Position numbers and translations under genes: made by a program. 64,000 nucleotides of DNA from positions 310,001 to 374,000 of the forward strand of contig NZ_JABBXA010000005.1 of the NCBI RefSeq assembly GCF_014161445.1. The letters are read 5' to 3'. Source of the stretch: Microbispora sp. H13382 (lineage in GTDB: Bacteria; Actinomycetota; Actinomycetes; Streptosporangiales; Streptosporangiaceae). A model generated the notes under the pieces. It worked only from the letters and a program-made list of their open reading frames with translations. It did no database searches and was not told the origin of the DNA. This document shows, piece after piece, positions 408 to 15,221 of the stretch (position 1 is its first letter; every line of letters begins with the position of its first letter).

Positions 408-539
408 GTGTTGAAGGTGCTGGCTGCTCTCGCGGTCGGGGCCGTGCTCGCCGGCGTCGCCTCCGTGGCGGTCGTCAACGTGGCAGCGCCCACCGCGGAG
501 CCGCCGAACAAGCCGCTCTACAACTACGGCGACAGGTGA
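408..539 (+). CDS. small DUF2613-family membrane or secreted protein
   Basis: This is a 43-residue ORF with GTG start 408, preceded by an excellent ribosome binding site (AAGGAGGA at 392-399, 8 nt spacing). The N-terminal 25 residues form one hydrophobic helix (LAALAVGAVLAGVASVAVV). A short polar tail follows, ending LYNYGDR. Length, single N-terminal helix and the YNYG tail match the DUF2613 family of tiny actinobacterial proteins. In M. tuberculosis the member Rv0236A lies next to aftD, and here an AftD-like gene is two genes downstream. It may assist or anchor a glycosyltransferase, but its function is unknown. It is too short for most ORF callers. The family call rests on motif and context. 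Confidence 0.75.
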   Translation: MLKVLAALAVGAVLAGVASVAVVNVAAPTAEPPNKPLYNYGDR

Positions 540-723
540 ACGCGGCAGACCTGACCCCCGTTCCATAAGGACTCCCGCGAAGACCGAGCCCGTCAGGGGG
601 CGTGGTTTCGCCACGCCCTCATGCGTCCGTGCCCCGATTCGCCCGCACCGCCCTGCCCGCCCCGTTCCGGCGACGCGGTGCTCCCCGAACTCCCGCCGAG
701 ACGTGTCACCCGAAGGAGTGGTC

Positions 724-1998
724 GTGGTCGCACAGGGTGCGAAGGCGAAGCCCTCGGGGCGCCCGGCCCCCCTTCCCGAGCCGCCCGACAGGCCGCACCT
801 GACGGCCGCCGGTGCCGCCCCTGCCGCCGTTCCCCCGCTCGACGGCGTACGCGTGGCCGTGCTGAACTTCCGCGAACCGAGCCAGACGGTCGCCGGCGGC
901 GCGGAGGAGTACGCCTGGCGGGTCTCCGCCTACCTCGTCGGCCAGGGCGCGAGCGTCAGCTTCCTCACCAGCCGGGAGCGGTACCAGATGCGCGCCGAGT
1001 CGCGCGACGGCATCCGGCTGCGCAGGATGGGCGGCAAGTACCTCGTCTATCTCCTCGTCCCGCTCTGGCTGCTGCTGCACCGCCGCCGGTTCGACGTCGT
1101 CGTCGACTGCATGAACGGCATCCCGTTCTTCTCCCCGGTCGTGGCGCGCCGCCGTACGCGGGTGATCTGCGTGGTCCACCACGTGCACGACCGGCAGTTC
1201 TACGCCTTCTTCCCGCGCTGGCTGGCGCGGATCGGCTGCTTCATCGAGGGGCCGGTGGCGCGGCTGCTGTATCGCCGGTGCACGACGGTGACGGTCTCCG
1301 AGTCCTCCCGGCACGAGCTGCGCGAGCGCCTGCGCTGGCTGGCCCCGATCGAGGTGGTGCCCAACGGCAGCCTGACCGCCAGGCCCGTCGCGAGCGAGCC
1401 GGTGTCGGGCGCCCCGGCCGTCGTCTACCTCGGACGCCTGGTCGGGCACAAGCGCGTCGAGCGGGTGGTCGAGCTCGCCGCCGAGCTGGCGCCCACCCGC
1501 CCCGGCCTGCACGTGCACGTCGTCGGGAGGGGGCCCGAGCACGACCGGCTGGCCGAGCGGGCGGGCGTGCCCGACGTCGCCGGACGCGTCCACCTGCACG
1601 GATTCCTGCCCGAGGCGGAGAAGAACGCGGTGCTCAGCCGCGCCAGGCTCAACGTCACGGCCTCGGAGTTCGAGGGCTGGGGGCTGACCGTGATCGAGGC
1701 GGCGGCCCTCGGCGTGCCCACCGTCGCCTACGACGTGGCCGGCCTGCGCGACTCCGTACGGCACGGCGTGACGGGCTGGCTGGTCCGCGACGGCGAGCGG
1801 CTCGCCGACGTGGTCGACCTCGCCCTGCGGGAGCTGGACGACCCCCTGACGAGGGCCCGGATGGCCCGGGCGTGCCGGCGCTGGGCGGGCGAGTTCACCT
1901 GGGGGAAGACCGGGGCCGCCGTGACCAGGCTGGTCGCGGCCGAACTCGGCCGGCTCCCCGCACGGCTGCCGGGCAGCCGCCATGAGCAGGAGGCCTGA
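724..1998 (+). CDS. GT4-family glycosyltransferase
   Basis: This is a retaining GT-B glycosyltransferase of about 424 residues that would transfer a sugar from a nucleotide donor to an envelope-glycan or lipid acceptor. The N-terminal Rossmann half begins near VRVAVLNFREPSQTVAGGAE, with the glycine-rich acceptor loop typical of GT4. The C-terminal half carries VVYLGRLVGHKRVERVV and the E-x7-E signature (Glu317 and Glu325, in EGWGLTVIE). In-frame GTGs occur at 703, 718 and 724. GTG 724 is preferred because GAAGGAG (712-718) lies 5 nt upstream. There is no membrane segment, so it is cytoplasmic or peripheral. The AftD-like gene starts 8 nt after its stop, so the two are probably co-transcribed. 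Rv0225, recalled as the mycobacterial counterpart in the same neighbourhood, is also GT4. The acceptor cannot be told from the sequence. Confidence 0.85.
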   Translation: MVAQGAKAKPSGRPAPLPEPPDRPHLTAAGAAPAAVPPLDGVRVAVLNFREPSQTVAGGAEEYAWRVSAYLVGQGASVSFLTSRERYQMRAESRDGIRLRRMGGKYLVYLLVPLWLLLHRRRFDVVVDCMNGIPFFSPVVARRRTRVICVVHHVHDRQFYAFFPRWLARIGCFIEGPVARLLYRRCTTVTVSESSRHELRERLRWLAPIEVVPNGSLTARPVASEPVSGAPAVVYLGRLVGHKRVERVVELAAELAPTRPGLHVHVVGRGPEHDRLAERAGVPDVAGRVHLHGFLPEAEKNAVLSRARLNVTASEFEGWGLTVIEAAALGVPTVAYDVAGLRDSVRHGVTGWLVRDGERLADVVDLALRELDDPLTRARMARACRRWAGEFTWGKTGAAVTRLVAAELGRLPARLPGSRHEQEA

Positions 1999-2006: not shown

Positions 2007-5000
2007 GTGTCCGTCGACGTCCCGGTCCAGCCGCGGGAGCCCGCGCGGGAAGAGGTGACCCGCGCGCCTGACGAGAGCGCCGGAGCCCCGGAGCCCGCCC
2101 CCGCCGCCCGTCCCGCGCCGCCCGGCCGGACGCTGCGGCACCGGCTCCGGCTGCTTGCGGGCTGCCTGCTGCTGGCGGCCGTCGCCTTCAACACCGCGCC
2201 CGGCGCGGTGATCTCCGAGACCAAGCTCGACATGGCGGTGAACCCCCTGGGGTTCCTGTCGCGCGCGCTGCACCTGTGGGATCCGGCCTACTTCGGCCAC
2301 CTGCAGAACCAGGCGTACGGCTATCTCTTCCCGATGGGGCCGTTCTACGTGCTCTTCCGGGCCATGGACATGCCCGCCTGGGACATCCAGCGGCTCTGGA
2401 TGTCGCTCGTGCTGTGCGCGGCGTTCCTCGGGACCGAGCGGCTGGCCCGGGCGATGGGGATCGGCTCGCCCGGCACCCGGATCCTCGGCGCGCTCGCCTA
2501 CGCCCTGGCCCCGCACGCGCTGGCCCTGATCGGGATCAACTCCTCGGAGTTCCAGCCGAGTGCCGTGCTGCCGTGGGTGCTGCTGCCGCTGGTCCGGGGC
2601 ACCCGGGAGGGCGCGAGCCCGCGCCGGGCCGCCGCGCTTTCGGCCGTCGCGTTCCTGTTCGCGGGCGGCGTCAACGCGGCGGCGGAACTGGCCGTGCTCG
2701 TCGTCCCGCTCGTCTACCTGCTCAGCCGCCGCCACGGCGGGCGCAAATGGGCCCTGCTCGGCTGGTGGCTGCTGTTCGTCGGCCTCGTGTCGATGTGGTG
2801 GGTCGTCCCGCTGCTGCTGCTCGGGCGCTACATCTTCTCGTTCCTGCCGTTCATCGAGACGGCGTCGGCGACCACCAGCGTCACCTCGCTGGTGAACGCG
2901 CTGCGCGGCACGTCGAGCTGGATCTCGTTCCTGCCGGTGGACGGGCAGCCGTGGCTGCCGGCGGCCTACGACCAGGCCACCGTGCCGTGGCTGGTCGCCG
3001 CGACGGCGCTGGTGGCCGGGCTCGGGCTGACCGGCGTCGTCCGCAGGGCGACCCCGGAGCGGACGTTCCTGGTCCTGAGCGTGGTCGCCGGCCTGCTGAT
3101 CGTCACCGCGGGCCACGCGGGCGACCTCGCCCACCCCTGGACCGGCCAGGTCAGGGACCTGTTCGACGGGCCGCTCGCGCCCTTCCGCAACCTGCACAAG
3201 TTCGACGCGCTGATCCGGCTGCCGCTGGCGCTCGGCCTGGCCGCGCTCCCCGTCGCCCTGCCGAGCACAGGACCGGCGCGCCTGCGCGGGCCGGTCACCG
3301 CTGCGACGGCCGGGCTGCTCGCGCTCACGCTCGTGCCGGTCGGGACGGCCGGGATGACCGCCCGCGGCTCCTTCGCGGACCTCCCCACCTACTGGCGGGA
3401 GGCGGCGGCCTGGCTGAACCGCAACGCGGGCGACGGCATGGTCCTCGCCATGCCCGGCTCGGCCCGGGGGGAGTATCTGTGGGGCCGGCCGCTCGACGAG
3501 CCCATGCAGTCGCTGCTGACCGTGCGCTGGGCCACCCACGCCAACGTGCCGTGGGGCTCGCCCGGCCTGGCCCGGCTCGTGCAGGCGGTGGACGAGCGCT
3601 TCGCCACCGGGCGCGGCTCGCCCGGCCTGACCGAGGCCCTGCGCCGCGCCGGGGTGAGCCACCTGCTCATCCGCAACGACCTGATCAGGGAGACGCTCGG
3701 CACCGCCTGGCCCGCCCGGGTGCACCAGACTCTGCAGGACTCCGGGCTGTCCAGGACCGCCGAGTTCGGGCCGCTGGTCGGCCTGACCGCGAGCGGCACC
3801 GCCTCGGGCTGGCTCGACCAGCCGTACCCGGCGCTGGAGGTCTACACGATCCCGGGGACGGCCCCGCTCGCCTCGACCGTGCCCCGTGCGGGCACGCTGC
3901 ACGTGGAGGGCGCCTCCGAGGCCGTGCTCGACCTGGCCGAGGAGGGCCTGCTCACCGACGACCGGCCGGTGCTCGTCGGCGACGAGCCGGGCGCCGCGGC
4001 GATCCCGCCCCGCGACACGATCCTCACCGACACGCTGCGGAAACGGGACATCGTGTTCGGCGACGTACGGCGCATCGCGTCGGCCACGCTGCCCGACGAC
4101 CAGGCGCCGGTGACCACCGACCTCACCGACCCGGCCTGGTCGGCGGCCACCTCGACCGCCCGCTATCTCGACGTGAAGGACGTCACCGCCTCGTCGGCGG
4201 ACTCCGGCGTCACGGCCGCCGCGGGCCAGCGCGACCCCGGGCGGCAGCCGTACGCCGCGCTCGACGACGACCCGCGCACGGGGTGGCGGTCGGACGGCTG
4301 GCACGGCGCGGTCGGGGAGTGGCTGGAGGTGCGCTTCACCGGCCAGGTCGACCTGACCGAGATCTCGGCGGCGTTCGAGCAGGAGGCGGTCGGGCCGCCG
4401 GTGGCCGAGGTCGCGCTGGAGACCGAGCGCGGCGTGCGGCGCGTCGCGGTGGCGCGGACCGACGCGCTCCAGCCGCTGCTGCCGGTGCCGGGGAAGAGCC
4501 AGTGGCTGCGTATCCGGGTGACCAGGCTCGCGTACGAGCCGAAGACGGCGCTCGGCAGCCGGGTCGGCATCACCGACCTGCGCGTCCCGGGCGTGCGGGC
4601 GGTGCGGACGATCTCGGTGCCGGACACCGGCGCGGGCGATCCCGGCACGATGCTGCTGACCAAGCAGGGGGACGCCGACGCGTGCATGCGGGGCTCGGTC
4701 ACCTGGACGTGCTCCTCGCGACTCCAGATCCTGGGCGAGGACGGCAACGGGTTCGACCGGCTCGTCCCGGTGGCGCGCGACGGCGTGCGCACGCTGCGCG
4801 GGCAGGCCGTGCTCACCGACCCCAAGGCGGCTGACCTGCTCACCACGCTGCCGAAGCAGTACCCGCACGTGAGCGCGTCCTCGACGGCGGCCGAGCACGG
4901 CGCCGTGCTGGGCCGCCAGGCGATGGACGGCGACCCCTCGACGCTGTGGTTCGCCCAGCCGTTCGACCGGCACCCGACGCTGTCGATCGACCTGGGGACG

Positions 5001-6152
5001 ACCCGGAGCTTCTCGCGGATCCGGGTGCTGTTCCCCGACTCGGCGCAGGGCATCCCGCCGGTGAAGCTCACACTGCGCGCGGGGACAGCGCTCACAGAAA
5101 CACGGGCCGTGCAGGGCTGGGTGGACCGCGACGGCGTGTTCACCTTCCCCGCGCTGAGGACGCGGACGTTCTCCATCGAGTTCACCGCGCCCGCCTCCCG
5201 CGCGATCGAGGTCGCCGAGATCGCCGTCCCCGGGGTGAAACCCCTCGGCGGCCTCGGCGCGATCCCCCTGCGGCTGCCCTGCGGCTACGGCCCCACCCTG
5301 CGGGTGGACGGCGACGACGTGCCGACCCGGGTGGTCGAGGGCACCCTCGACGACGTGCTCAACGGCCGCCCGCTGACCTACTCGGGCTGCGCGCCCGTGC
5401 ACCTGACCGAGGGCCGCAGCAGGGTCAGCGTGGCGCCGGGCGACGCCTTCCGGGTGCGCTCGGTGGTGCTGGACGACGGAAGCGGGCAGGAGCGGAAGGC
5501 GGTGACGGCCGCCCCCGCCACGGTGACGTCGTGGGGGCCGCAGGAGCGCCGCCTCCGGGTCGCCGCCGCAGCCCCGTCCTATCTGGTCGTCAACGAGAAC
5601 TTCAACGCCGGCTGGCAGGCGTACGTCGACGGAGCGCGGCTGACCCCGGCACGGCTCGACGGCTGGCGGCAGGCGTGGGAACTGCCGGCCGGCGGCGGCG
5701 AGGTGGTGCTGCGCTACGAGCCCGACCCGGCCTACCGCACGGCGCTGCTCGCCGGGCTGGGCCTGGCCCTCGCGGTGGTGGCCCTGGCGCTGGTGCGCGG
5801 CCGGTCGCGGTCGCGCGCCGCCGGGCCGGGCCGCGTCCGCGCGCTGTGGGTGTGGATCGCGGCGCCGCTCGCCGGGCTGTGGGCCGGGGGCGTGCCGGGT
5901 GTGGCCGTCGTCGCCGTCGCGCTGGCGGCGTTCCTGTGGCTGCGCGCGATCGCCGGCGCCCAGCACGCGGGTCCGAGCCGCCTGCGGGCTCTCGCCCGCC
6001 GCGGCGCCTCCGCGTGGGTGGTGCTCGTCGCGCTCGGCCTCGCCGGCGTCGCCCAGGCCGCGGGGCAGGGCCCGGCCGCCGACGCGCTCTGCCTCGTCGT
6101 GCTCGCCCGGCTGCTGGCCGCCGTAGGGGATCAGGGAGAGGTGAGCCGATGA
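2007..6152 (+). CDS. aftD: AftD-like alpha-(1->3)-arabinofuranosyltransferase family protein
   Basis: This is a 1381-residue polytopic membrane protein, about the usual length of mycobacterial AftD. A proline/alanine-rich cytoplasmic N-terminus leads into a GT-C multi-helix core (about residues 50-480). Long extracytoplasmic beta-rich regions follow. Two F5/8 type C (discoidin-like) carbohydrate-binding segments start near residues 725 and 954, marked by ALDDDPRTGWRS and AMDGDPSTLWFA. A C-terminal region (NENFNAGWQAYVDG) precedes about four closing membrane helices (about 1245-1375). AftD uses decaprenyl-phosphoryl-arabinose to branch arabinan on the outer face of the membrane, and the genes for making that donor lie 6 kb downstream. 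The GTG start at 2007 has its Shine-Dalgarno (AGGAGG, 1988-1993) 13 nt away, so the start is uncertain. The stop overlaps the next ATG by 4 bp. Donor and linkage are inferred from family membership. Confidence 0.82.
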   Translation: MSVDVPVQPREPAREEVTRAPDESAGAPEPAPAARPAPPGRTLRHRLRLLAGCLLLAAVAFNTAPGAVISETKLDMAVNPLGFLSRALHLWDPAYFGHLQNQAYGYLFPMGPFYVLFRAMDMPAWDIQRLWMSLVLCAAFLGTERLARAMGIGSPGTRILGALAYALAPHALALIGINSSEFQPSAVLPWVLLPLVRGTREGASPRRAAALSAVAFLFAGGVNAAAELAVLVVPLVYLLSRRHGGRKWALLGWWLLFVGLVSMWWVVPLLLLGRYIFSFLPFIETASATTSVTSLVNALRGTSSWISFLPVDGQPWLPAAYDQATVPWLVAATALVAGLGLTGVVRRATPERTFLVLSVVAGLLIVTAGHAGDLAHPWTGQVRDLFDGPLAPFRNLHKFDALIRLPLALGLAALPVALPSTGPARLRGPVTAATAGLLALTLVPVGTAGMTARGSFADLPTYWREAAAWLNRNAGDGMVLAMPGSARGEYLWGRPLDEPMQSLLTVRWATHANVPWGSPGLARLVQAVDERFATGRGSPGLTEALRRAGVSHLLIRNDLIRETLGTAWPARVHQTLQDSGLSRTAEFGPLVGLTASGTASGWLDQPYPALEVYTIPGTAPLASTVPRAGTLHVEGASEAVLDLAEEGLLTDDRPVLVGDEPGAAAIPPRDTILTDTLRKRDIVFGDVRRIASATLPDDQAPVTTDLTDPAWSAATSTARYLDVKDVTASSADSGVTAAAGQRDPGRQPYAALDDDPRTGWRSDGWHGAVGEWLEVRFTGQVDLTEISAAFEQEAVGPPVAEVALETERGVRRVAVARTDALQPLLPVPGKSQWLRIRVTRLAYEPKTALGSRVGITDLRVPGVRAVRTISVPDTGAGDPGTMLLTKQGDADACMRGSVTWTCSSRLQILGEDGNGFDRLVPVARDGVRTLRGQAVLTDPKAADLLTTLPKQYPHVSASSTAAEHGAVLGRQAMDGDPSTLWFAQPFDRHPTLSIDLGTTRSFSRIRVLFPDSAQGIPPVKLTLRAGTALTETRAVQGWVDRDGVFTFPALRTRTFSIEFTAPASRAIEVAEIAVPGVKPLGGLGAIPLRLPCGYGPTLRVDGDDVPTRVVEGTLDDVLNGRPLTYSGCAPVHLTEGRSRVSVAPGDAFRVRSVVLDDGSGQERKAVTAAPATVTSWGPQERRLRVAAAAPSYLVVNENFNAGWQAYVDGARLTPARLDGWRQAWELPAGGGEVVLRYEPDPAYRTALLAGLGLALAVVALALVRGRSRSRAAGPGRVRALWVWIAAPLAGLWAGGVPGVAVVAVALAAFLWLRAIAGAQHAGPSRLRALARRGASAWVVLVALGLAGVAQAAGQGPAADALCLVVLARLLAAVGDQGEVSR

Positions 6153-7132
6153 CAAGCGCTCTTCCGCGGTCGCCGCGCACGCTGCTTCTGGCGGGCATCG
6201 CCTTCCTGGTCACCGTGGGGGTGCTGTTCCACTTCTACGTCTCCCCGCGGACCACGGTGCTGCCGCTTGAGCTGACGAGGATCCAGCGGCTCGTCTCGCC
6301 CTCGGCCACCTACCTCGACACCGCCACGTTCCGCCTCCACCGGGGCGTGCCCGTGCAGAACACGGTGGCCGTCTACGGCGATCCGCGGGCCGGGGACGAC
6401 CGCACGGCCGTGTGGGTGGAGTTCTCCTCGCTCGACACCCGGGACGGCGAGCGCGTCGACTACCACGAGCGCCGCACGGCCTTCGACCGGCGGACCGGCC
6501 TCGCCGTCGACTGCTGCGGGGGGTACGTCGACGAGGATCCCGGCGTACGGCAGACCGGGCTCGCCTTCCGCCTGCCCGCCGGGGCGGAGCCGCGCTCGTA
6601 CGGGATGTTCGACCCGGTGCTGCGGCGGGAGGCGCCGATGCGGTTCGAGCGCGAGGAGACCGTGGAGGGCCTGCGGACCTACCGCTACACCTACGCGGCC
6701 GGGCCGGTGAAGACGGCCGACCTGCCCGGACCGGTGCCCGGCAGGTCGGTCGGCATGCCCGGCGAGCCGCGGGTCACCGTGGCGAGATACACCGAGATCA
6801 CCCGCACGATCTGGGTCGAGCCGGAGAGCGGGCTGACCGTGCGCACGCAGGAGCGGCGGCGCGACACCCTGCGCACGCCCGACCAGGTCGAGCGGCAGGT
6901 CGCCTTCGACGCCGACCTGAGGACGAGCGCCGCCGAGGTGCGGGCGTTCGCCGACGAGGCGGCCCGGTTCCGCCGGTGGATCCTGCTGACGCGCGAGTGG
7001 ATCCCGCTGGCGTGCGGCCTGCTCGCGGTCGTGCTCGCCGCGGTCTACCGGATCGGCACCCGGACGAGGAGGTCAGCGGCGGCGCAGCACCAGCAGCAGG
7101 TTCCACGTCACGATCTCGCGAACGCCGGGTAG
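6149..7132 (+). CDS. DUF3068 (PorA-family) membrane protein, copy 1
   Basis: This 327-residue protein starts at ATG 6149, overlapping the aftD-like stop (ATGA), so translation is coupled. It has an N-terminal signal-anchor helix (TLLLAGIAFLVTVGVLFHFYV) at about residues 10-30. A large extracytoplasmic beta-rich domain contains a Cys-Cys pair (VDCCGGYVDED) and the family hallmark TIWVEPESGLTV. A second helix lies near the C-terminus (WIPLACGLLAVVLAAVYRIG). This is the DUF3068 layout, recalled for Rv0227c in the mycobacterial AftD neighbourhood. Some databases call the family PorA porin, but no porin activity is evident here. The last 60 bp overlap the convergent methyltransferase gene. A paralogue lies at 11185-12111. 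Confidence 0.82.
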   Translation: MTSALPRSPRTLLLAGIAFLVTVGVLFHFYVSPRTTVLPLELTRIQRLVSPSATYLDTATFRLHRGVPVQNTVAVYGDPRAGDDRTAVWVEFSSLDTRDGERVDYHERRTAFDRRTGLAVDCCGGYVDEDPGVRQTGLAFRLPAGAEPRSYGMFDPVLRREAPMRFEREETVEGLRTYRYTYAAGPVKTADLPGPVPGRSVGMPGEPRVTVARYTEITRTIWVEPESGLTVRTQERRRDTLRTPDQVERQVAFDADLRTSAAEVRAFADEAARFRRWILLTREWIPLACGLLAVVLAAVYRIGTRTRRSAAAQHQQQVPRHDLANAG

Positions 7133-7810
7133 ATGGATCACCGGGGTCGCCCAGCGAGGGTGATAGCGCGGCAGGGCGTCGACGAGGTCGGCGCCGGGGT
7201 GCCGCCGGGCCCACGCGAGCGCCCGGGCCACCGACACGGCGTACATGCTCGTGCCGTACACGTTCTTGGGGGAGCGGCCGTGGCGGCGCGTGTAGCGGCG
7301 CGCGGCGCGGTGCCCGCCCAGGTAGTGCCACGGCGAGGTCTCGTGGCCGCCCCAGGGCGACAGCCAGTTGGTGAACGACAGGTAGACCAGGCCGCCCGGC
7401 CGCGTCACCCGCACCATCTCGTCGCCCATCCGCCACGGGTCGGGCACGTGCTCCAGCACGTTGGAGGAGAAGCACACGTCCACGGAGCCTGTCTTCAGCG
7501 GCAGGTCGAGGGCGCTGCCGAGCACCGCGCCGTCGGGGATCGCGCCGGTGCGCGCGCTCATCTCCCCGGCGTCGCAGTCCACGCACACCGGCCGCGCGCC
7601 CACGGCGCGCAGCGCGTCGGTGAAGTAACCGGGCCCGCCGCCGACGTCCGCGACGAGCGCGCCGTCCAGGTCGGCGTACGCCGCGAGCTGGGCGACGGTG
7701 TCGCGGGCGAGCAGGCCGTAGAAGAAGTCGGGGTCGGTCTGCTCCTTGCGGAAGGCGCTGAACAGGCGAATCGAACGGGCCAGGTCGGCGCGGAACGGCT
7801 CGGCGTGCAC
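7073..7810 (-). CDS. class I SAM-dependent methyltransferase
   Basis: This is a soluble Rossmann-fold methyltransferase of about 245 residues. Motif I is VADVGGGPGYFTDAL, an acidic residue after strand 2 is in VCVDCDAGE, and the motif IV/post-motif region is VDVCFSSNVLEHVPDP, followed by RPGGLVYLSFTN. The ORF extends to an ATG at 7843. The downstream GTG at 7810 has AGGAGAGG 6 nt upstream on the minus strand and is the better start. It is the only leftward gene among rightward envelope genes and overlaps the DUF3068 gene tail-to-tail. Rv0224c is the recalled mycobacterial counterpart. A sugar or lipid-linked glycan substrate is inferred from context only. Confidence 0.83.
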   Translation of the reverse strand: MHAEPFRADLARSIRLFSAFRKEQTDPDFFYGLLARDTVAQLAAYADLDGALVADVGGGPGYFTDALRAVGARPVCVDCDAGEMSARTGAIPDGAVLGSALDLPLKTGSVDVCFSSNVLEHVPDPWRMGDEMVRVTRPGGLVYLSFTNWLSPWGGHETSPWHYLGGHRAARRYTRRHGRSPKNVYGTSMYAVSVARALAWARRHPGADLVDALPRYHPRWATPVIHLPGVREIVTWNLLLVLRRR

Positions 7811-7880: not shown

Positions 7881-9887
7881 ATGAGTCAGATCATGCGTAC
7901 CGGACAGCCCGGCATGGCGCCGGCATGGCGAGCGGGCCTGGCGAATCCTGTCATGATCGCGGCGGTCCTGCTGGTCGCGGCGTCGCTGGCGGTCCGCGTC
8001 CCCGTCCTCACGTCGTCCTCCTTCGTCGAGGACGACTTCCTGTTCGTGGGTGACGCCTACGAGCACTCCCTCACGTTCGACTTCCTGTTCCGCGTCCACA
8101 AGGGTCACCTGATGCCGGGGGCGCTCGGGCTCACCTGGGTGCTGTCGCGGCTGTCGCCGTACGACTGGCTGCTGGTCTCGGCGGTCACGTTCGCGGTCCA
8201 GGCCGCAGCGGCGGTCATGCTGCTGCGGCTGCTCGTGCGGTTGTTCGGCACGCGGCCCGGCATCATGCTGCCGCTCGCCCTCGCCCTGTTCTCGCCGCTG
8301 ACCATCCCGGCCTTCGGGTGGTGGTCGGCCGCCATCAACGCGGTGCCGCTCCAGCTCGCCATGGTCATGGCCCTCGCCGCCCAGGTGAGGTACGTCAGGG
8401 AGGGCGGGGCGCGGCACGCCCGCTGGGCCTTCTTCTGGGTCCTAGCCGGCATGGCGTTCAGCACGAAGGGGGTCTTCGTCCCGTTCCTGCTGTTCGCGCT
8501 CACCACGTCGCACCTGCGGCCGTGGGCGGGCCCGTGGCCGGCGCTCATGCTCCGCGAAGCGCGCGCCCACTGGCGGCTGTGGGGGTCGTACGCGGTGCTG
8601 ACGGGCGCGTACGCGGCGCTGTACCTGGCCCGCCGCGGCACCGCGCCGGGCGAGGGCGCGGCCGTCCCGGCGCCGGGCGACGCGGCTGACCTGCTGGGCC
8701 GCCTGCTGGGCGAGGTCTTCCCCGCCGGGGTGGTCGGCGGGCCGCTGTCGTGGGGCCCGGTGCTGCCCAACGGCGGGCTGGCCGACCCGAGCCCGCTGCT
8801 GGTGGCCGCCGGATGGGCCGTGCTCGCCGCACTGGTGGCCGCCACCGTGCTGTGGCGGCGGCGGGCCGTGCGGGCCTGGCTGATCCTGGCGGGCTACCTG
8901 GTCGCCGCGGACGGCGTGCCCACGGCGATCGCGCGGGGCACCGGGCTCGCCCAGGTCGTCGGCTCCGAGACCCGGTACGTCGCCGACGCGGCGATCGTGT
9001 TCGCGGTCTGCCTGGGGCTCGCGCTGCTGCCCATGCGGGACGAGACCGAGCCCTACCGGCGCCCGATTCCCGCCGGGAGCGGGCTGCCGACGGCGGCGGG
9101 ACTCCTCGCGGGCGCCTACCTCGCGATGTCGATCGTCTCGATCCAGAACTACCGCGACACGCTGTCGGGCGACCGTGTGCGGGCCTACCTTGCCGCGGTG
9201 CGGGCCTCGCTCGCCCGGGTGCCGGACACGGCGGTCATCTACTCCAGCCCGCTGCCCGAGGACATCGTGCTGCCCTGGAACGGCAACCGCAGGCTCAGCC
9301 ACCACCTGCTGGCCCCGCTCGCCCGGCCCGCGCTGCGCGCCCGGATACGGGTGCCCGAGCCGTCGGAGCAGGCGCTCGTCTTCGACGACAAGGGCGGGCT
9401 CGCGCCGGTCGAGGTCAAGGCGTCGGTCGGGGTGGTGCCGCCGGGGGGCCGCCCGTGCTTCCCGCTCTTCGGCGACGCGATCTTCTTCCCCGACGTCGTG
9501 TCCTTCGGCGGGCCCGGGCCGATCGCCGGGCTGGCCTACACCGCCGAGCGCGCGGGCACCGGCGATTACGAGATGAGCGGGCAGCGGGGACAGTTGCGGT
9601 TCCACGCCACCGGCTCCGGCGGCGCGCTGGTGCGCTTCCCGGTCACGGCCGTCGGCAAGGGGCTGCTGATCCGGCTGGACGACCCGTCGGGGGTCTGCCT
9701 GAAGGGCTTCGCCTACGGCGACCCCGTGCCCGGCGCGCCCGCCCCTACGGCCGCGGCGACGCCGCGGCCGTCTCCGTCGGTGTCTCCGTCGGTGTCTCCG
9801 TCGGTGTCTCCGTCTCCGTCCGCTTCCGTGACGAGGTCGCCAGGCGGGCGAGGCGCCTCGCCGGCTCCTCGACGTACCGGTGGGTGA
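7881..9887 (+). CDS. polytopic GT-C-like membrane protein with Ser/Pro repeat tail
   Basis: This is a protein of about 668 residues starting at ATG 7881 (ORF readable from 7746, but the upstream part lies over the divergent methyltransferase start). The N-terminal half has about 9-11 hydrophobic helices. An acidic loop after the first helix (SFVEDDFLFVGD) is typical of GT-C transferases, which use such acidic residues for metal or phosphate binding. The C-terminal 250 residues are extracytoplasmic and beta-rich with no recognised domain. The final 45 residues are a low-complexity Ser/Pro/Val tail encoded by 12-bp repeats that overlap the convergent acyltransferase gene by 143 bp. Its place beside DUF3068, acyltransferase and methyltransferase genes matches Rv0226c as recalled. 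The GT-C activity is inferred; no donor can be named. Confidence 0.65.
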   Translation: MSQIMRTGQPGMAPAWRAGLANPVMIAAVLLVAASLAVRVPVLTSSSFVEDDFLFVGDAYEHSLTFDFLFRVHKGHLMPGALGLTWVLSRLSPYDWLLVSAVTFAVQAAAAVMLLRLLVRLFGTRPGIMLPLALALFSPLTIPAFGWWSAAINAVPLQLAMVMALAAQVRYVREGGARHARWAFFWVLAGMAFSTKGVFVPFLLFALTTSHLRPWAGPWPALMLREARAHWRLWGSYAVLTGAYAALYLARRGTAPGEGAAVPAPGDAADLLGRLLGEVFPAGVVGGPLSWGPVLPNGGLADPSPLLVAAGWAVLAALVAATVLWRRRAVRAWLILAGYLVAADGVPTAIARGTGLAQVVGSETRYVADAAIVFAVCLGLALLPMRDETEPYRRPIPAGSGLPTAAGLLAGAYLAMSIVSIQNYRDTLSGDRVRAYLAAVRASLARVPDTAVIYSSPLPEDIVLPWNGNRRLSHHLLAPLARPALRARIRVPEPSEQALVFDDKGGLAPVEVKASVGVVPPGGRPCFPLFGDAIFFPDVVSFGGPGPIAGLAYTAERAGTGDYEMSGQRGQLRFHATGSGGALVRFPVTAVGKGLLIRLDDPSGVCLKGFAYGDPVPGAPAPTAAATPRPSPSVSPSVSPSVSPSPSASVTRSPGGRGASPAPRRTGG

Positions 9888-11076
9888 GCGTGGCGAGCAG
9901 CAGCGTGAGCGCGCCGACCACGACCAGGTTGCCGGCGAAGTTCCCGCTCCACGCCTGTTGCTCGGTGAAGTCGTACCAGAGATAGAGGGCCACGAACTGC
10001 CACAGGAACACGCCGTACGACACCCGGCCGAGGAAGCGCATCACCCGGCTGCTCAGGAAGCGGCCGTACGGCGAGCCTCCGGCCGGCAGCAGCGCGGCCG
10101 GGGTCACCAGCCCGGCCGCCACCGTGGCGTACAGGGCCAGCTCCGACAGGTCGGCCCAGACGCCGTCCACGCCGCTGAAGCGCGTGCCGGTGAGCGGCGA
10201 GGCCGCCACGGCGTACGCGAGGGCGGCGACGAGCAGGAACGAGCCCGCGGACGCGCCCACCGCCCGGACGAGGCGATGCGCAGGGCCGCCGGGGTCGCGT
10301 TCCTCCCGCGCCCACTCGGAGACGACGGCCAGCGCCATGCCGACCGCGAAGAACACCCAGGCCCGGGGCAGCCAGGCGTTCAGGAAGGGCCGGTAGACCG
10401 GGTAGTAGGTGAGCAGCGCCCACGCGAACGACGACGCGGCGAGCACGGCGACGCCGGTCAGCAGCCGCCGCGCGCGGGCGTCGAGGCCGGGGCCGCCGCG
10501 CCGCGCGAACGCCGCGAGCACGGCGGCGACCAGCGGCAGCAGCACGTAGAAGGCGGCCTCGACGCACAGGCTCCACATCTGGGCGAGCCCGCGTGGCCCG
10601 AGGCCGAACCACCAGGGGTGGATCTCGTAGGTATGGCCGAGCAGCAGCAGTTGCAGCCACGTCTTGACGTCGCCGAGGTGCGGCTTGGACCACAGCACCA
10701 TCGCCACGACCACGACCAGCCAGTACGCCGGGAGGATGCGCAGGGCGCGCTTGACGAGGTAGTCGCGGGTGCCCGGGGGACGCCCGCCGAGCAGCGCGGC
10801 ACGCGCGTACGGCCGGTAGAGGAGCAGCCCGGACAGCGCGAAGAAGATGGGGACCGCGACGTCCCCCCGGGCGAGCAGGCTGCTGAAGAAGTTGTCGTGC
10901 AGCGCCGCCGCCGACTCGATCGCGACGTGGAAGACGAGGACGGCGAGGGCCGCGAGGGCCCGCACGCCGTCGAGGGCGTCGACGTGACCGGTGGGCACGG
11001 CAGTGTCACGAACGGGTTGCGAACCGGCGGGTAACATGTCACGAGTCACCGACGAGCTAGAACCTGTTTCGGTCAC
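9745..11076 (-). CDS. acyltransferase family 3 integral membrane protein
   Basis: This is a 443-residue polytopic protein of the acyltransferase-3 (OafA/NodX-like) family, which O-acylates cell-surface glycans. The N-terminal family signature is clear: HVDALDGVRALAALAVLVFH with the conserved His in the first helix, then GVAVPIFF-like text and FALSGLLLYRPY. About ten helices follow, and a PTET-rich tail ends the protein. The GTG at 11076 has only a weak upstream GGAAAA. V10 (11049) or Met14 (11037) are alternative starts, and an operator-like palindrome covers the first codons of the longest form. It is convergent with the GT-C-like gene and divergent from the second DUF3068 gene. Rv0228 is the recalled counterpart. 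The acyl group and acceptor are unknown. Confidence 0.87.
   Translation of the reverse strand: MTETGSSSSVTRDMLPAGSQPVRDTAVPTGHVDALDGVRALAALAVLVFHVAIESAAALHDNFFSSLLARGDVAVPIFFALSGLLLYRPYARAALLGGRPPGTRDYLVKRALRILPAYWLVVVVAMVLWSKPHLGDVKTWLQLLLLGHTYEIHPWWFGLGPRGLAQMWSLCVEAAFYVLLPLVAAVLAAFARRGGPGLDARARRLLTGVAVLAASSFAWALLTYYPVYRPFLNAWLPRAWVFFAVGMALAVVSEWAREERDPGGPAHRLVRAVGASAGSFLLVAALAYAVAASPLTGTRFSGVDGVWADLSELALYATVAAGLVTPAALLPAGGSPYGRFLSSRVMRFLGRVSYGVFLWQFVALYLWYDFTEQQAWSGNFAGNLVVVGALTLLLATLTHRYVEEPARRLARLATSSRKRTETETPTETPTETPTETAAASPRP
9771..9819. repeat. 12-bp tandem repeat shared by two convergent gene ends
   Basis: The unit TCTCCGTCGGTG occurs three times without error (9771-9806) and continues as degenerate TCTCCG units to about 9819. 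On the plus strand it encodes SPSV repeats at the tail of the membrane protein. On the minus strand it encodes PTET repeats at the tail of the acyltransferase. Length variation by slippage would alter both tails in frame. Confidence 0.9.
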
Positions 11077-11184: not shown

Positions 11185-12111
11185 ATGCGCCGCGCAGTGG
11201 GAGTTGTTCTCTTGGCAATCGGGGCGTTCCTCGTCGTCTTCGCGCCACTGCTGCGGTTCCAGGTGGCGGACAAGCTCGTGCAGGCGCCGGCCGACCAGTA
11301 CAGCGTCGCGAAGCTGACCGCTCCCAACGCGCGTTACTTCAGCATGCGCGACCTGAAGGTCCTCACCGGCGACCTCGACATCACGGTCACCGTCCGGGGC
11401 GACGTCAAGGAGTCCAAGGACGACCACGTGGTGTGGGACCAGTTCACCGCCGCCAGCGACGTCACCAACAACAACCCGCGGATCTCGATGACGCAGTTCC
11501 GCAGCGCGTTCAACAAGTTCAACGGCCAGGGCGTCACCTGCTGCGGCACCAGCGTCGACAACGGGGAGGGCGCGCAGCCCGTGCAGCTGCAGGGCCAGGT
11601 CTTCCTGTTCCCCTTCGGCGTCGAGAAGAAGACCTACCAGGTGTTCAACGCCGACGCCCGTAAGGCGTACGACGCGACGTTCACCGGTGAGGACACGGTC
11701 AACGGGCTGCCGGTCTACAAGTTCACACAGCAGATCCCCCCGACCGTCACCGACACGCTCAGCGCGCCCGCCTCCGTGCTCGGCATGAAGGGCACCGGGG
11801 ACATCCAGGTCGAGCGCGTCTACGACGGCACCATCACGTTCTGGGTGGAGCCGAACACCGGCGTGGCGGTCAAGCAGGAGCAGCAGCGCCACGAGGTGCT
11901 GAAGACGTCCGACGGTGTCGAGCGCCTGCCCGCCTTCATCGCCACCGCGTCGTTCACCCCGGAGACCGTCGGCAACCTGGTGCAGACGGCACGCGACAAC
12001 ATGGCCCAGATCACGCTGATCAGGACGACGCTCCCGCTGGTGGCGCTCATCCTCGGGCTCGCGCTCGCCGTCGTCGGGGCGTGGCTGCTGCGGCCCCGCC
12101 GCGTGAACTGA
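11185..12111 (+). CDS. DUF3068 (PorA-family) membrane protein, copy 2
   Basis: This 308-residue paralogue of the protein at 6149-7132 starts at ATG 11185 with a strong AGGAGGAG just upstream. It has an N-terminal helix (VGVVLLAIGAFLVVFAPLL), an extracytoplasmic domain with a Cys-Cys pair (GVTCCGTSVDNGEG), the family-typical TITFWVEPNTGVAV, and a C-terminal helix (LPLVALILGLALAVVGAWLL). The layout matches copy 1, although sequence identity by eye is modest. It sits directly before the prenyltransferase-DprE1-DprE2 genes, so it probably belongs to the same envelope programme. Function is unknown. Confidence 0.83.
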   Translation: MRRAVGVVLLAIGAFLVVFAPLLRFQVADKLVQAPADQYSVAKLTAPNARYFSMRDLKVLTGDLDITVTVRGDVKESKDDHVVWDQFTAASDVTNNNPRISMTQFRSAFNKFNGQGVTCCGTSVDNGEGAQPVQLQGQVFLFPFGVEKKTYQVFNADARKAYDATFTGEDTVNGLPVYKFTQQIPPTVTDTLSAPASVLGMKGTGDIQVERVYDGTITFWVEPNTGVAVKQEQQRHEVLKTSDGVERLPAFIATASFTPETVGNLVQTARDNMAQITLIRTTLPLVALILGLALAVVGAWLLRPRRVN

Positions 12112-12131: not shown

Positions 12132-13076
12132 GTGAAGCGGGAGAGCGCGCTGAACCCGCCGATGGGCCCGCCGGTGGCGACGCTTCCGGCGGGCACGCCC
12201 TCCCGGCGCGCATGCGCGGTCGGGCTGGCGCGGGCCTGCCGGCCCCGGCAGTGGCTCAAGAACGCGCTCGTCTTCGCCGCACCGGCCGCCGCCGGAGTGC
12301 TGACCACCGGGGCGGGCCTGCGCGGCTCGCTCGTCGCGTTCGCCGCCTTCTGCCTGGCCGCGAGCGGCTCCTACCTTTTCAACGACGCGGCCGACGTGGC
12401 CGCCGACCGGCGCCACCCGCGCAAGCGGCTGCGCCCGATCGCGTCCGGGATCGTGTCCGTACGGCTCGCGCGGGCCGTGGGCGCGGCACTGCTGGCGGCC
12501 GGTTTGCTCGCCGGGCTCGCGGGCGGGTGGCCGCTCGCCGCCGTGGTGGCCGCCTATCTCGCGCTCACCTTCGCCTACACCCTCTGGCTCAAGCACCAGC
12601 CCGTGGTGGACCTGGTCGCGGTGGCCTGCTGCCACGTGGTGCGCGCGTACGCGGGGGCGGTCGCCGTGGCCGTGCCGGTGACGAGCTGGTTCCTGGTCGT
12701 CGTCTCGCTCGGCTCGCTGCTGCTGGTGACCGGCAAGCGGGAGGCCGAGCTCCGCGCCCGGCCCGGGGACGGCCCGATCGCCCGGGCCACGCTGGAGACC
12801 TACACCGCGAGCTACCTCGGCCACGTGCGTGTCATGGCCTCGGGGGCGATGATCGTCACCTACTGCCTGTGGGCGCTCCAGGAGCACACCGGGCCGGCCA
12901 AGGTGTTCTGCGCGCTCAGCATCGTGCCGTTCGTGCTGGTCGTGCTGCGGCACGCGCTGCTGGTCGACCGCGGAGTGGGGGAGGAACCCGAGGAACTAGT
13001 GCTGCGCGACCGCCCGCTCCAGGTCTTCCTCGCGCTGATGCTGGTCCTGCTGGCGTGCGGTATCCAACTGGCATGA
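12132..13076 (+). CDS. ubiA: UbiA-family decaprenyl-phosphate phosphoribosyltransferase
   Basis: This is a polytopic membrane enzyme of about 314 residues expected to transfer 5-phosphoribosyl from PRPP to polyprenyl phosphate, the first committed step to decaprenyl-phosphoryl-arabinose. The first Asp motif is FNDAADVAADRRHPRK followed by RLRPIASG, which is characteristic of the Rv3806c-like branch rather than the quinone branch. RPRQWLKNALVFAAP precedes it, and the second motif LTFAYTLWLKHQPVVD follows. About eight hydrophobic helices are visible. The ORF reads from GTG 12081, but that overlaps the preceding gene. GTG 12132 or ATG 12162 are more likely starts, neither with a strong Shine-Dalgarno. 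Its stop overlaps the dprE1-like ATG, giving translational coupling that supports the pathway assignment. Confidence 0.86.
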   Translation: MKRESALNPPMGPPVATLPAGTPSRRACAVGLARACRPRQWLKNALVFAAPAAAGVLTTGAGLRGSLVAFAAFCLAASGSYLFNDAADVAADRRHPRKRLRPIASGIVSVRLARAVGAALLAAGLLAGLAGGWPLAAVVAAYLALTFAYTLWLKHQPVVDLVAVACCHVVRAYAGAVAVAVPVTSWFLVVVSLGSLLLVTGKREAELRARPGDGPIARATLETYTASYLGHVRVMASGAMIVTYCLWALQEHTGPAKVFCALSIVPFVLVVLRHALLVDRGVGEEPEELVLRDRPLQVFLALMLVLLACGIQLA

Positions 13077-14410
13077 CTCTGCTGACGGGATGGGGGCGCA
13101 CGGCGCCCACGCGCGCCACCGTGGCCCGCCCGCGCATCGCCGAGGAGGCGGCCGCGCTGCTGGCGAAGGCGGGAAGCCGTGGCGTCGTCGCCCGCGGCCT
13201 CGGCCGCGCGTACGGCGACGCCGCGCAGAACGCGGGCGGGCTCGTGCTCGACTGCACCGCGCTGGAGCGGTCGTGGCAGGTCGACTCCACGGGGCTCGTC
13301 ACCGCGTCGGCGGGAATCAGCCTGCACGACCTCATGACCGCGCTCGTCCCGCGCGGCTGGTTCGTCCCGGTGACCCCCGGCACCCGGTACGTCACGGTCG
13401 GCGGGGCCGTCGCGGCCGACGTGCACGGCAAGAACCACCACGTGGACTCCTCCTTCGGCGCCCACCTGCGCTCGCTGCGCCTGCTCACCGCCGACGGGAG
13501 CCTGCGGACGCTCGGCCCCGGCGACGACCTGTTCTGGGCCACCGTGGGCGGCATGGGGCTGACCGGGGTGATCACCGAGGCGACGTTCCGGTGCGTGCCG
13601 GTCGAGACCGCGTGGGTGCGGGTGGACGTCGAGCGCACCCGCGACCTCGACGAGACCCTGGCGACGATGACCGCGACCGACGACGGTCACCGCTACACGG
13701 TCGCGTGGATCGACCTGCTGGCGCGGGGCGGGCGGATGGGCCGGGGCGTGCTCACCCGGGGCGACCACGCCGTGCCGGGCGACCTGCCCGCCCGCGCGCG
13801 CGGGAACCCGCTCGCCTTCGCGCCGCGGCCCCTGCTGTCGGCCCCGCCCCGGGTGCCCGGCGGCCTGCTCAACCGGGGCACCGTCCGGGCCTTCAACGCC
13901 GCCTGGTACGGCAAGGCCCCCGCCGCCCCGCGCCGGATCGTCCAGGGCATCGCGCCGTTCTTCCATCCGCTCGACGGCGTGGACGGCTGGAACCGGATGT
14001 ACGGCCCGCGCGGCTTCGTGCAGTACCAGTTCGTGGTGCCGATCGGAGCGGAGGACACGCTGCGCCGGGTGGTCGAGCGGCTGTCCGGCGCGGGGGTCGT
14101 GTCGTTCCTGACCGTGCTGAAGAGGTTCGGGGCGGGGACCCCCGGCATGCTGTCGTTCCCCATGCCGGGGTGGACGCTGGCCCTGGACATCCCGGCCGGG
14201 CAGATCGGGCTGGCCGCGATGCTGACCGAGTTCGACGAGTGGGTCGCCGCGGCCGGGGGCCGCCTCTACCTGGCCAAGGACTCCCGCATGTCCGCCGCCA
14301 CCATGGCCGCGACGTACCCCCGGCTGCCGGAGTGGCGGGAGATCCGGCGCCGGGCCGACCCGGACGGTGTCTTCGTCTCCGACCTCGCCCGTAGGCTGCG
14401 CCTGTGCTGA
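13073..14410 (+). CDS. dprE1: decaprenylphosphoryl-beta-D-ribose 2-oxidase (DprE1-like)
   Basis: This 445-residue FAD-dependent oxidase oxidises the 2'-OH of decaprenylphosphoryl-ribose to the keto intermediate. It starts at ATG 13073, overlapping the upstream stop. The N-terminus TLLTGWGRTAPT, the FAD-binding segment RGLGRAYGDAAQN, and the HGKNHH motif (His118) all match DprE1. So do the YGPRGFVQYQFVVP and LAKDSR motifs (Lys402, equivalent to the essential Lys418). The residue aligned by eye with Cys387 of the tuberculosis enzyme, the target of benzothiazinones, is Ala370 in GWTLALDIP. The enzyme should therefore lack the covalent drug site. The dprE2-like gene follows 10 bp later. Confidence 0.9.
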   Translation: MTLLTGWGRTAPTRATVARPRIAEEAAALLAKAGSRGVVARGLGRAYGDAAQNAGGLVLDCTALERSWQVDSTGLVTASAGISLHDLMTALVPRGWFVPVTPGTRYVTVGGAVAADVHGKNHHVDSSFGAHLRSLRLLTADGSLRTLGPGDDLFWATVGGMGLTGVITEATFRCVPVETAWVRVDVERTRDLDETLATMTATDDGHRYTVAWIDLLARGGRMGRGVLTRGDHAVPGDLPARARGNPLAFAPRPLLSAPPRVPGGLLNRGTVRAFNAAWYGKAPAAPRRIVQGIAPFFHPLDGVDGWNRMYGPRGFVQYQFVVPIGAEDTLRRVVERLSGAGVVSFLTVLKRFGAGTPGMLSFPMPGWTLALDIPAGQIGLAAMLTEFDEWVAAAGGRLYLAKDSRMSAATMAATYPRLPEWREIRRRADPDGVFVSDLARRLRLC

Positions 14411-14420
14411 AGGAGTGGTT

Positions 14421-15221
14421 GTGAGGAACGCACTGGGTTCGGTCGACACCGTCCTGCTGCTCGGCGGGCGCAGCGAGATCGGCCTCGCGATCGTGGAACG
14501 GCTGGTCCGGCGGGGCGCCCGCCGGGTCGTGCTCGCCGTCCGCGGTGCTTCCGCACCCAGGGAAAACGGTGCCTCCGCGTCCGTGAAGGACGGCGGCGCC
14601 GCCGTGCCGGTGGAGGACCTCGAACGGCTCGGGGCCGAGGTTCACGTGCTGGACTTCGACGCCGCCCGCCCGGAGACGCACGCCGCCCTGATCGAGGAGG
14701 CCGCCGCCAGGGCCGGCGACCTCGACGTGGTGATCCCGGCGTTCGGCGTGCTCGGCAGCCAGGCGGTCTACGACGCCGACCCGGTGGCCGCCGCCCGAGA
14801 CGTCGCGGTCAACTTCGGCGGCCACGTCTCGATCGGGCTGGCCGCCGCCGGGCGGCTGCGCGAGCAGGGACACGGCACGCTCGTCGTGCTGTCGTCGGTG
14901 GCCGGGGTGCGGGTGCGCAAGGCCAACTTCGTGTACGGCTCGGCCAAGGCCGGGCTCGACGGCTTCGCCCAGGGACTGGCCGACGCGCTGCACGGCTCCG
15001 GGGCCCGGGTCGTGGTCGTCCGGCCGGGTTTCGTGATCGGCCGGATGACGCGGGGGATGACCCCCGCCCCGATGTCGGTGACGGCGGCCGAGGTCGCGGA
15101 CGCGGTCGTGGAGGCCCTGGACACGCGGCAGGGGACCGTGTGGGTCCCCGCGCGGCTGCGCCTCGCGTTCGCCGTCATGCGCCTGCTTCCCCGCCCCATA
15201 TGGCGCAGACTCCCCCGCTGA
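14421..15221 (+). CDS. dprE2: decaprenylphosphoryl-2-keto-erythropentose reductase (DprE2-like SDR)
   Basis: This 266-residue short-chain dehydrogenase would reduce the DprE1 product to decaprenyl-phosphoryl-arabinose using NAD(P)H. The cofactor loop is VLLLGGRSEIGLAI, a variant of TGxxxGIG matching the DprE2 subfamily (GGxSEIGLA). The acidic segment LDFDAARPE and catalytic Tyr172/Lys176 (YGSAKAG) are present. GTG 14421 is chosen because AAGGAG (14410-14415) lies 5 nt upstream, although the frame is open from further upstream. It is co-transcribed with the dprE1-like gene and is the last gene of the rightward glycan block. A convergent protease gene follows after 43 bp. Confidence 0.87.
   Translation: MRNALGSVDTVLLLGGRSEIGLAIVERLVRRGARRVVLAVRGASAPRENGASASVKDGGAAVPVEDLERLGAEVHVLDFDAARPETHAALIEEAAARAGDLDVVIPAFGVLGSQAVYDADPVAAARDVAVNFGGHVSIGLAAAGRLREQGHGTLVVLSSVAGVRVRKANFVYGSAKAGLDGFAQGLADALHGSGARVVVVRPGFVIGRMTRGMTPAPMSVTAAEVADAVVEALDTRQGTVWVPARLRLAFAVMRLLPRPIWRRLPR

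What the first reader, a model, noticed from the sequence alone, without database searches (positions are those of the whole stretch)
408..15221. Complete arabinan-type locus in one contiguous block
DUF2613, GT4, AftD-like, DUF3068, methyltransferase, GT-C-like, acyltransferase, UbiA-type phosphoribosyltransferase, DprE1-like and DprE2-like genes lie together. In mycobacteria the same families are split between two loci. The surrounding genome shows no sign of mycolic-acid genes, so the polymer may be an arabinan or other pentofuranan not attached to mycolates. It points to an undescribed envelope glycan in a non-mycolate actinobacterium.
Basis: partly seen in the sequence, partly recalled or inferred. 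Interest (0 to 1): 0.72.

Follow-up and report, generated by a model that had tools for sequence, protein, structure and literature searches.

The report
Swappable actinobacterial envelope-glycan gene locus
A bacterium without mycolic acids carries, in one removable block, relatives of the genes that tuberculosis-type bacteria use to export their waxy lipids and finish their arabinan, and related species have lost the block or carry a version in which the sugar-donor genes are exchanged.

Summary
The ten gene families are real and lie where stated. The host is very probably a Microbispora (Streptosporangiaceae, described as lacking mycolic acids). Emb and GlfT2 were not found; Pks13 matches are partial. 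Published whole-cell sugars of four Microbispora strains list no arabinose, so an abundant arabinan is doubtful.

The block combines two modules. One (MmpA, GT4, MtrP-like, AftD, TmaT-like, PgfA, small peptide) equals the 'tmaT locus' plus aftD of mycolate bacteria. Of 43 AftD loci examined (4 mycobacterial), 34 hold at least 5 of these 6 core families. The other module makes polyprenyl-phosphate-arabinose (UbiA, DprE1, DprE2).

In the window's own genus (15 genomes) the site holds this block (9), a variant with a polyprenyl-P-hexose-synthase-like GT2 instead (3), or nothing (3). AftD lineage largely follows the donor genes.

Best reading: a dispensable, exchangeable locus for a lipid-anchored surface glycan whose donor sugar can be swapped. 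Its tmaT genes suggest that this machinery predates mycolates. Acceptor and product are unknown.

The parts
1..270 (+). 3' end of a 559-aa polytopic membrane protein, homologue of mycobacterial MmpA (Rv0226c); the gene starts about 1.4 kb before the window (L002:12592-14271)
   Evidence: MmpA-position protein of a Mycobacteriaceae genome (L160:6386-8029): 35% over 538 aa, 142 bits, to the allele-B copy; 34% over 476 aa, 110 bits, to this copy; no Pfam match; left end of the unit missing from empty sites
408..539 (+).
   Evidence: same peptide in 29 of 70 loci at E<=2e-8; Mycobacteriaceae counterparts only at E 0.003-0.2 (iterated profile)
724..1998 (+). GT4 glycosyltransferase of the tmaT-locus type
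   Evidence: PF00534 E 3e-29; 37-38% to the GT4 of the tmaT locus in two Mycobacteriaceae genomes
2007..6152 (+). AftD-type GT-C arabinofuranosyltransferase with CBM domains
   Evidence: PF11847 749.9 bits; PDB 6w98, mycobacterial AftD, E 2e-142 over residues 51-1331; the only PF11847 match in the genome
6149..7132 (+). PgfA/LmcA (DUF3068, PorA family) copy 1
   Evidence: NF053601 221 bits; PDB LmcA 7n3v E 1e-11
7073..7843 (-). MtrP-like methyltransferase
   Evidence: PF08241; 54% over 244 aa to the MtrP-position protein of a Mycobacteriaceae genome
7881..9887 (+). uncharacterised GT-C glycosyltransferase with C-terminal CBM6/CBM35-like domain
9745..11076 (-). TmaT-like acyltransferase-3 membrane protein
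   Evidence: PF01757 111 bits; best match in the whole own genome to the TmaT-position protein of a Mycobacteriaceae genome, 118 bits vs 55 for the next
11185..12111 (+).
   Evidence: PF11271 264 bits; the two PgfA genes here are the only two matches in the genome
12162..13076 (+). decaprenyl(polyprenyl)-phosphate phosphoribosyltransferase (UbiA family)
   Evidence: NF008978 379 bits, cut-off 207; PDB 8j8j E 9e-62
13073..14410 (+). DprE1, polyprenyl-P-ribose 2-oxidase; Ala at the benzothiazinone cysteine position (position recalled)
   Evidence: NF053785 618 bits; PDB 4aut E 3e-131, GWNVCVDF aligned with GWTLALDI
14415..15221 (+). DprE2, 2-keto reductase; right end of the unit missing from empty sites
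   Evidence: NF053786 288 bits, cut-off 250; junctions of empty sites

Best explanation
This is a self-contained, dispensable, exchangeable locus that builds a lipid-anchored surface glycan in a bacterium without mycolic acids. Proposed steps: GT4 starts or extends a glycolipid on the inner face of the membrane (inferred). UbiA joins phosphoribose from PRPP to polyprenyl phosphate, an unlinked phosphatase removes the 5'-phosphate, and DprE1/DprE2 epimerise ribose to arabinose, giving polyprenyl-P-D-arabinofuranose (family membership shown, chemistry inferred; the phosphatase was not looked for). After flipping, AftD and the second GT-C enzyme transfer the pentose outside the membrane (inferred). 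The TmaT-like enzyme acylates the product, and the PgfA proteins, with MmpA and the MtrP-like protein, carry it to its place, as their relatives do with trehalose mycolates and lipoglycans (inferred). In allele B of the same site a GT2 resembling polyprenyl-P-hexose synthases stands in place of the arabinose-donor genes, so the same machinery probably adds another sugar.
For: Gene families. Conserved module: 43 AftD loci, one per genome, picked from the 121 AftD-positive genomes and spread over genera: of six core families (MmpA, GT4, MtrP, AftD, TmaT, PgfA) 6 are present in 23 of 43, at least 5 in 34, at least 4 in 39; 4 of the 43 are Mycobacteriaceae. TmaT is the best match in the own genome. 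Co-occurrence in 225 Emb-negative genomes: of 100 with AftD, 81 have PgfA (odds ratio 27) but only 33 have DprE1 over its cut-off (odds ratio 2). Genus census: DprE1 at >=85% in 9 of 15, GT2B at >=90% in 3 of 15 with no overlap, site empty in 3 of 15. Between alleles A and B AftD is 43-44% identical while most flanking genes are 76-92%. The G286 junction, read by eye, keeps about 24 nt of the start of the mmpA homologue followed by a short stretch like the last codons of dprE2. AftD tree (quick, SH-aLRT only): allele-B AftDs group with another genus that also has GT2B (99*), outside the 20-row clade that holds the window. In the window's family (25 genomes) all 18 DprE1-positive genomes are AftD-positive.
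Against: No product is known. Published whole-cell sugars of four Microbispora strains list no arabinose; which allele those strains carry is not shown, though the type strain of one of the species, M. hainanensis DSM 45428 (L003), has allele A. The donor split is not perfect: G025 has GT2B beside AftD and also a DprE1 just under the cut-off (497.6 of 500 bits) on another contig; G099 has both a GT2B and a DprE1-like match in its locus (224 bits with the curated model). 67 of 100 Emb-negative AftD genomes lack a DprE1 over the cut-off, two of them just under it, so AftD's donor cannot be read from its name. GT2B's link to polyprenyl-P-hexose synthases rests on PF00535 and a weak PDB match (E 1e-5). 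PgfA occurs without AftD in 17 genomes. Allele B lacks the MtrP-like gene, the first PgfA and the second GT-C. Four of 43 AftD loci hold only 2 of the 6 core families. Fisher values ignore relatedness.
Confidence: 0.55

Rival explanations
1. One reading: a substantial arabinan or LAM/arabinogalactan-like pentofuranan polymer is made here, as in mycobacteria but without mycolates.
For: Polyprenyl-P-arabinose genes plus AftD with CBM domains; LmcA/PgfA loss in C. glutamicum removes full-length LM/LAM (PMC8972800, passages); Microbispora clausenae has phosphatidylinositol mannosides.
Against: No Emb, no GlfT2 match (no positive control run); no arabinose among published whole-cell sugars of four strains. 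The LM backbone enzymes MptA/MptB were not searched.
Confidence: 0.2
2. The DprE1/DprE2/UbiA genes serve protein or pilin glycosylation, the second GT-C being a protein arabinosyltransferase, while the tmaT-like genes do something unrelated next door.
For: The GT-C model is closest to oligosaccharyl- and protein-mannosyl-transferases. The phosphoribosyl-polyprenol route also feeds other pentofuranose-adding GT-C systems (PMC11127046, passages).
Against: In the genus the block is present or absent as a whole; in the window's family DprE1 was never found without AftD (18 of 18). GT-C folds are alike whatever the acceptor.
Confidence: 0.1
3. The donor genes arabinosylate a specialised metabolite, and the block is a biosynthetic gene cluster.
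For: In the Streptomyces loci fetched, DprE1/DprE2 (mostly with a UbiA on the other strand) lie without AftD in the stretch held, up to 10 kb each side, so this cassette is used elsewhere for something else.
Against: No synthase of a metabolite core (polyketide, peptide, terpene) was seen among the genes of the block; the partners are envelope families.
Confidence: 0.05

Closest known systems
tmaT locus of Corynebacterineae (tmaT, lmcA/pgfA, mmpA, a GT, mtrP; C. glutamicum NCgl2759-2765; M. tuberculosis Rv0226c, Rv0227c and neighbours, the full range Rv0224c-Rv0228 recalled) with aftD nearby
   Same: Same families, clustered: MtrP 54%, MmpA 34-35%, GT4 37-38%, TmaT 35-39%, PgfA about 29-31% identity to Mycobacteriaceae genomes; AftD and a small peptide also there.
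   Different: Here in a bacterium without mycolic acids; polyprenyl-P-arabinose genes and a second GT-C are built in; the block is missing in some species, whereas Rv0226c and Rv0227c are reported essential in mycobacteria (PMC8698533, PMC8972800, passages). The MmpA paper states that MmpA shares no homology to proteins outside corynebacteria/mycobacteria, apart from partial similarity to AftD.
Mycobacterial decaprenyl-phosphoryl-arabinose pathway (Rv3806c, DprE1, DprE2) and AftD
   Same: Family models over their cut-offs and near full-length PDB matches.
   Different: No Emb and no GlfT2 match; Ala at the benzothiazinone cysteine position; AftD about 7 kb from DprE1 instead of about 480 kb as in G213.
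Three-component periplasmic pentofuranose addition systems (GT136 type, PMC11127046)
   Same: Polyprenyl-P-ribose origin, optional DprE1/E2 epimerases, GT-C with a CBM (passages).
   Different: Those modify Gram-negative O antigens; here PgfA, TmaT, MtrP and MmpA relatives take part and the whole donor set is exchanged between alleles.

Membership tests
Polyprenyl-P-arabinose (DPA) synthesis genes | DPPR synthase, DprE1 and DprE2 over curated cut-offs | tested here: met
   379 vs 207, 618 vs 500, 288 vs 250 bits; PDB 8j8j, 4aut
Polyprenyl-P-arabinose (DPA) synthesis genes | Rv3807c-type 5'-phosphatase | not tested
   none noticed among the block's genes; the genome was not searched for it
AftD (PF11847) | GT-C domain plus CBMs, full length | tested here: met
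   749.9 bits; F5/8C and CBM_AftD matches, the latter just at its cut-off (27.1 vs 27); 6w98 over residues 51-1331
AftD (PF11847) | transfers D-arabinofuranose | not testable with these tools
   67 of 100 Emb-negative AftD genomes lack a DprE1 over the cut-off, so the family need not be uniform in donor
tmaT locus | MtrP, GT4, MmpA, PgfA and TmaT families together | tested here: met
   TmaT best match in own genome; best matches in own genome were not run for MtrP, GT4 and MmpA
tmaT locus | acts on trehalose mycolates | tested here: inconclusive
   indirect only: no full-length Pks13 match in own genome; family described as without mycolic acids (PMC6113628)
Arabinogalactan biosynthesis | EmbA-C family (PF04602) | tested here: not met
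   no match in own genome; 0 of 61 genomes of the order; 21 of 246 in the class, all in one family
Arabinogalactan biosynthesis | GlfT2 galactofuranosyltransferase | tested here: inconclusive
   no match in own genome, but no positive-control genome was included
Arabinogalactan biosynthesis | AftA, AftB, AftC, GlfT1 | not tested
GT2B as polyprenyl-P-hexose synthase | GT2 of the DPM synthase / GtrB type | tested here: inconclusive
   PF00535 73.5 bits; PDB DPM synthase 5mlz E 1e-5; substrate unknown

The most novel reading that the evidence does not exclude
MmpA, GT4, MtrP, AftD, TmaT and PgfA form an ancient actinobacterial machine that assembles, acylates and carries a lipid-anchored glycan to the cell surface. 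Mycolate bacteria later turned its acylation and carrier parts to trehalose mycolate export. In Microbispora it works as a swappable locus, like an O-antigen or capsule locus, whose sugar is set by exchange of the donor-lipid genes together with a matching AftD lineage.
Probability: 0.4. Interest if true: 0.8.

Novelty: new variant of a known kind. Interest (0 to 1): 0.63.

Why it matters
PgfA, MmpA, MtrP and TmaT are studied as parts of mycolate export or lipoglycan assembly, and Rv0226c/Rv0227c are reported essential in mycobacteria. If the same set works in bacteria without mycolic acids, and can be missing there without killing the species, its original substrate was something else and its chemistry can be studied in harmless strains with natural null mutants. 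The A/B/empty polymorphism in one genus gives ready-made comparisons to find the product and to learn what decides the donor sugar of AftD-type enzymes.

Tried and rejected
Rejected: 'arabinan locus special to this organism' (AftD in 121 of 246 genomes of the class). Rejected: AftD presence implies arabinose-donor genes. Rejected: the GT-C gene at 7881-9887 is MmpA; the MmpA-position protein of Mycobacteriaceae matches the gene upstream of the window instead (only the two best matches per protein were printed). G014's empty junction shares 17 nt with the end of dprE2 of G032, but this overlaps a terminator arm, so it is not counted as a deletion scar; G285's junction shows no clear remnant. 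In G286 the mmpA-side remnant is the stronger part; the dprE2-side stretch is short and imperfect. Genome-wide absence of AftD and PgfA in an empty-site genome was tested for G014 only; for G285 and G286 only DprE1 and GT2B were tested. G289's site lies at contig ends and was not seen; it is called allele A from DprE1 alone. The motif TKLD was found literally in 35 of 51 AftD rows; among the other 16 the second pattern showed TKID or TKYD in 8 and matched nothing in 8. My gene caller misses some genes (for example the acyltransferase overlapping its neighbour), so gene lists per locus are lower bounds; one search used six-frame ORFs instead. The profiles were iterated on the same loci, so generic families (GT4, methyltransferase, acyltransferase) could draw in paralogues; synteny is the safeguard. 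The lists compared were copied by me from the answers. Literature: ten searches; among the papers they listed, none was about this module in bacteria without mycolic acids; only listed titles and abstract openings were seen, many hits were not listed, and subscription papers are mostly not held. Papers were seen as search listings and passages; for PMC8698533 also the outline with abstract and the figure legends, and for PMC11064477 also the outline with abstract.
Full report

THE HOST. The best named relative of DprE1 is Microbispora hainanensis DSM 45428, 93%. Emb has no match in the own genome or in any of the 61 genomes sampled from its order. GlfT2 gives no match (without a positive control). 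Pks13 gives only partial matches, the best 43% over residues 96-528 of 1774. Streptosporangiaceae are described as lacking mycolic acids (PMC6113628, passages). Whole-cell sugars listed for Microbispora clausenae, M. bryophytorum and M. catharanthi (PMC8049491, passages) and for M. hainanensis CSR-4 (PMC7338456, passages) include no arabinose, which speaks against an abundant arabinan but not against a minor decoration.

THE LEFT HALF IS THE tmaT LOCUS. In C. glutamicum and mycobacteria a conserved locus holds tmaT, lmcA/pgfA, mmpA, a putative glycosyltransferase and mtrP. TmaT, MtrP and MmpA are needed to acetylate and export trehalose corynomycolate; LmcA is needed for full-length LM/LAM; PgfA binds a TMM analogue (PMC8698533, PMC8972800, PMC9678360, PMC7775120). 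Fetched Mycobacteriaceae loci show the same five families near AftD, and each matches a protein of the Microbispora block: MtrP 54% over 244 aa, GT4 37-38%, TmaT 35% over 381 aa, PgfA (copy 2) about 29-31%. The MmpA-position protein matches the gene just upstream of the window (34% over 476 aa; 35% over 538 aa for the allele-B copy). Searching the own genome with the TmaT-position protein gives the window gene as best match, 118 bits against 55 for the next. The MmpA paper states that this protein has no homologue outside corynebacteria and mycobacteria, apart from partial similarity to AftD; sequence and gene order here argue otherwise.

HOW WIDE IS IT. In 246 genomes of the class (at least 90% complete), AftD is found in 121, PgfA in 119, DprE1 over its cut-off in 79 and Emb in 21, all in one family. 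Of 225 Emb-negative genomes 100 have AftD; 81 of these have PgfA (odds ratio 27, p 1e-25) but only 33 have DprE1 over the cut-off (odds ratio 2, p 0.03; relatedness not corrected). I read 43 of the 121 AftD loci, chosen to spread over genera: 23 hold all six of MmpA, GT4, MtrP, AftD, TmaT and PgfA, 34 hold at least five, 39 at least four and 4 only two; four of the 43 are Mycobacteriaceae, two of which were read with an adjoining stretch. The small peptide is found at 29 of 70 loci at E<=2e-8. So the stable partners of AftD are the tmaT-locus genes, not the arabinose-donor genes.

THE GENUS SHOWS WHAT THE UNIT IS. Fifteen genomes of the window's genus were compared. DprE1 at 85% or more is present in 9. 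A GT2 related to polyprenyl-P-hexose synthases (GT2B; PF00535, PDB DPM synthase E 1e-5) at 90% or more is present in 3 others. In the remaining 3 the gene before the locus is directly followed by the protease. Allele B (G016, G003, G290) has the MmpA homologue, GT2B, GT4, AftD, acyltransferase, PgfA and an Asp/Glu-racemase-family gene between the same flanking genes; UbiA, DprE1, DprE2, the MtrP-like gene, one PgfA and the second GT-C were not found at its site. AftD of A and B is 43-44% identical, whereas most flanking genes are 76-92%. In the empty genome G286 the junction, read by eye, runs from about 24 nt of the start of the MmpA homologue into a short stretch like the last codons of DprE2, which looks like the scar of a deletion of the entire block; the other two empty junctions are not clear. 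On a tree of a flanking gene the three empty genomes need three separate changes and allele B is one clade (100/99*). The site was seen in 8 of 9 A genomes, 3 of 3 B and 3 of 3 empty.

DONOR AND TRANSFERASE CHANGE TOGETHER. On a tree of 51 AftD proteins (quick method, SH-aLRT support) the allele-B AftDs group with that of another genus (G025) that also has GT2B beside it (99*), outside a 20-row clade that holds the window and in which 18 rows have DprE1 in the genome; 8 of the 20 are from the window's genus. A second, distant set with GT2B next to AftD lies in another family (L135-L137). Exceptions: G025 also has a DprE1 just under the cut-off on another contig (497.6 bits), and G099 has both a GT2B and a DprE1-like match in its locus (224 bits with the curated model).

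READING. The block is one exchangeable unit, from the MmpA homologue to DprE2, that makes a lipid-anchored surface glycan. The arabinose-donor cassette is one of at least two donor cassettes; AftD most likely transfers D-arabinofuranose in allele A and probably a hexose in allele B. The TmaT-, PgfA-, MmpA- and MtrP-like proteins would acylate and carry the product. Product, acceptor and donor use are inferred; gene families, gene order and allele states are shown; the deletion in G286 is well supported but read by eye. In mycobacteria Rv0226c and Rv0227c are reported essential; here the whole set is absent from the site in 3 of 15 species (genome-wide absence of AftD and PgfA tested for G014 only).

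Noticed in passing
window 13073-14410 (DprE1): The cysteine targeted by benzothiazinones in mycobacterial DprE1 (position recalled) is Ala here: GWNVCVDF aligned with GWTLALDI.
   Followed up: partly
L010-L031 and other Streptomyces loci: The Streptomyces loci fetched carry DprE1 and DprE2 (mostly with a UbiA on the other strand) without AftD or the tmaT set in the stretch held; use unknown.
   Followed up: no
L075 (Cyanobium usitatum), L045 (Chloroflexi MAG), L072 (Acidobacteria MAG): DprE1 relatives at 53-60% identity outside Actinomycetota (binning of the MAGs not checked).
   Followed up: no
L002:6799-12484 (window -7202 to -1517): In the window's genome and G009 extra genes (878 aa, M24 peptidase, metallo-beta-lactamase fold) stand between the left flank gene and the MmpA homologue; in G287 and G032 the two are adjacent or nearly so.
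   Followed up: no
L004 (Planotetraspora mira), L006, L007: Extra copies of the unassigned GT-C+CBM protein stand in or near the block, four copies in L004.
   Followed up: no
genomes of group f17, e.g. G130:C1:1246708: A second, distant AftD-family protein (about 260-310 bits) accompanies the first in many genomes of this family.
   Followed up: no
L176 (G286) 15180-15480: The junction of the empty site holds about 250 bases with repeated GTGATCTTG-like words, perhaps a small repeat element that helped the deletion.
   Followed up: no
window 15265-16410: An alpha-lytic-type secreted protease is the right-hand flank in the allele-A, allele-B and empty sites that were seen to that end.
   Followed up: partly
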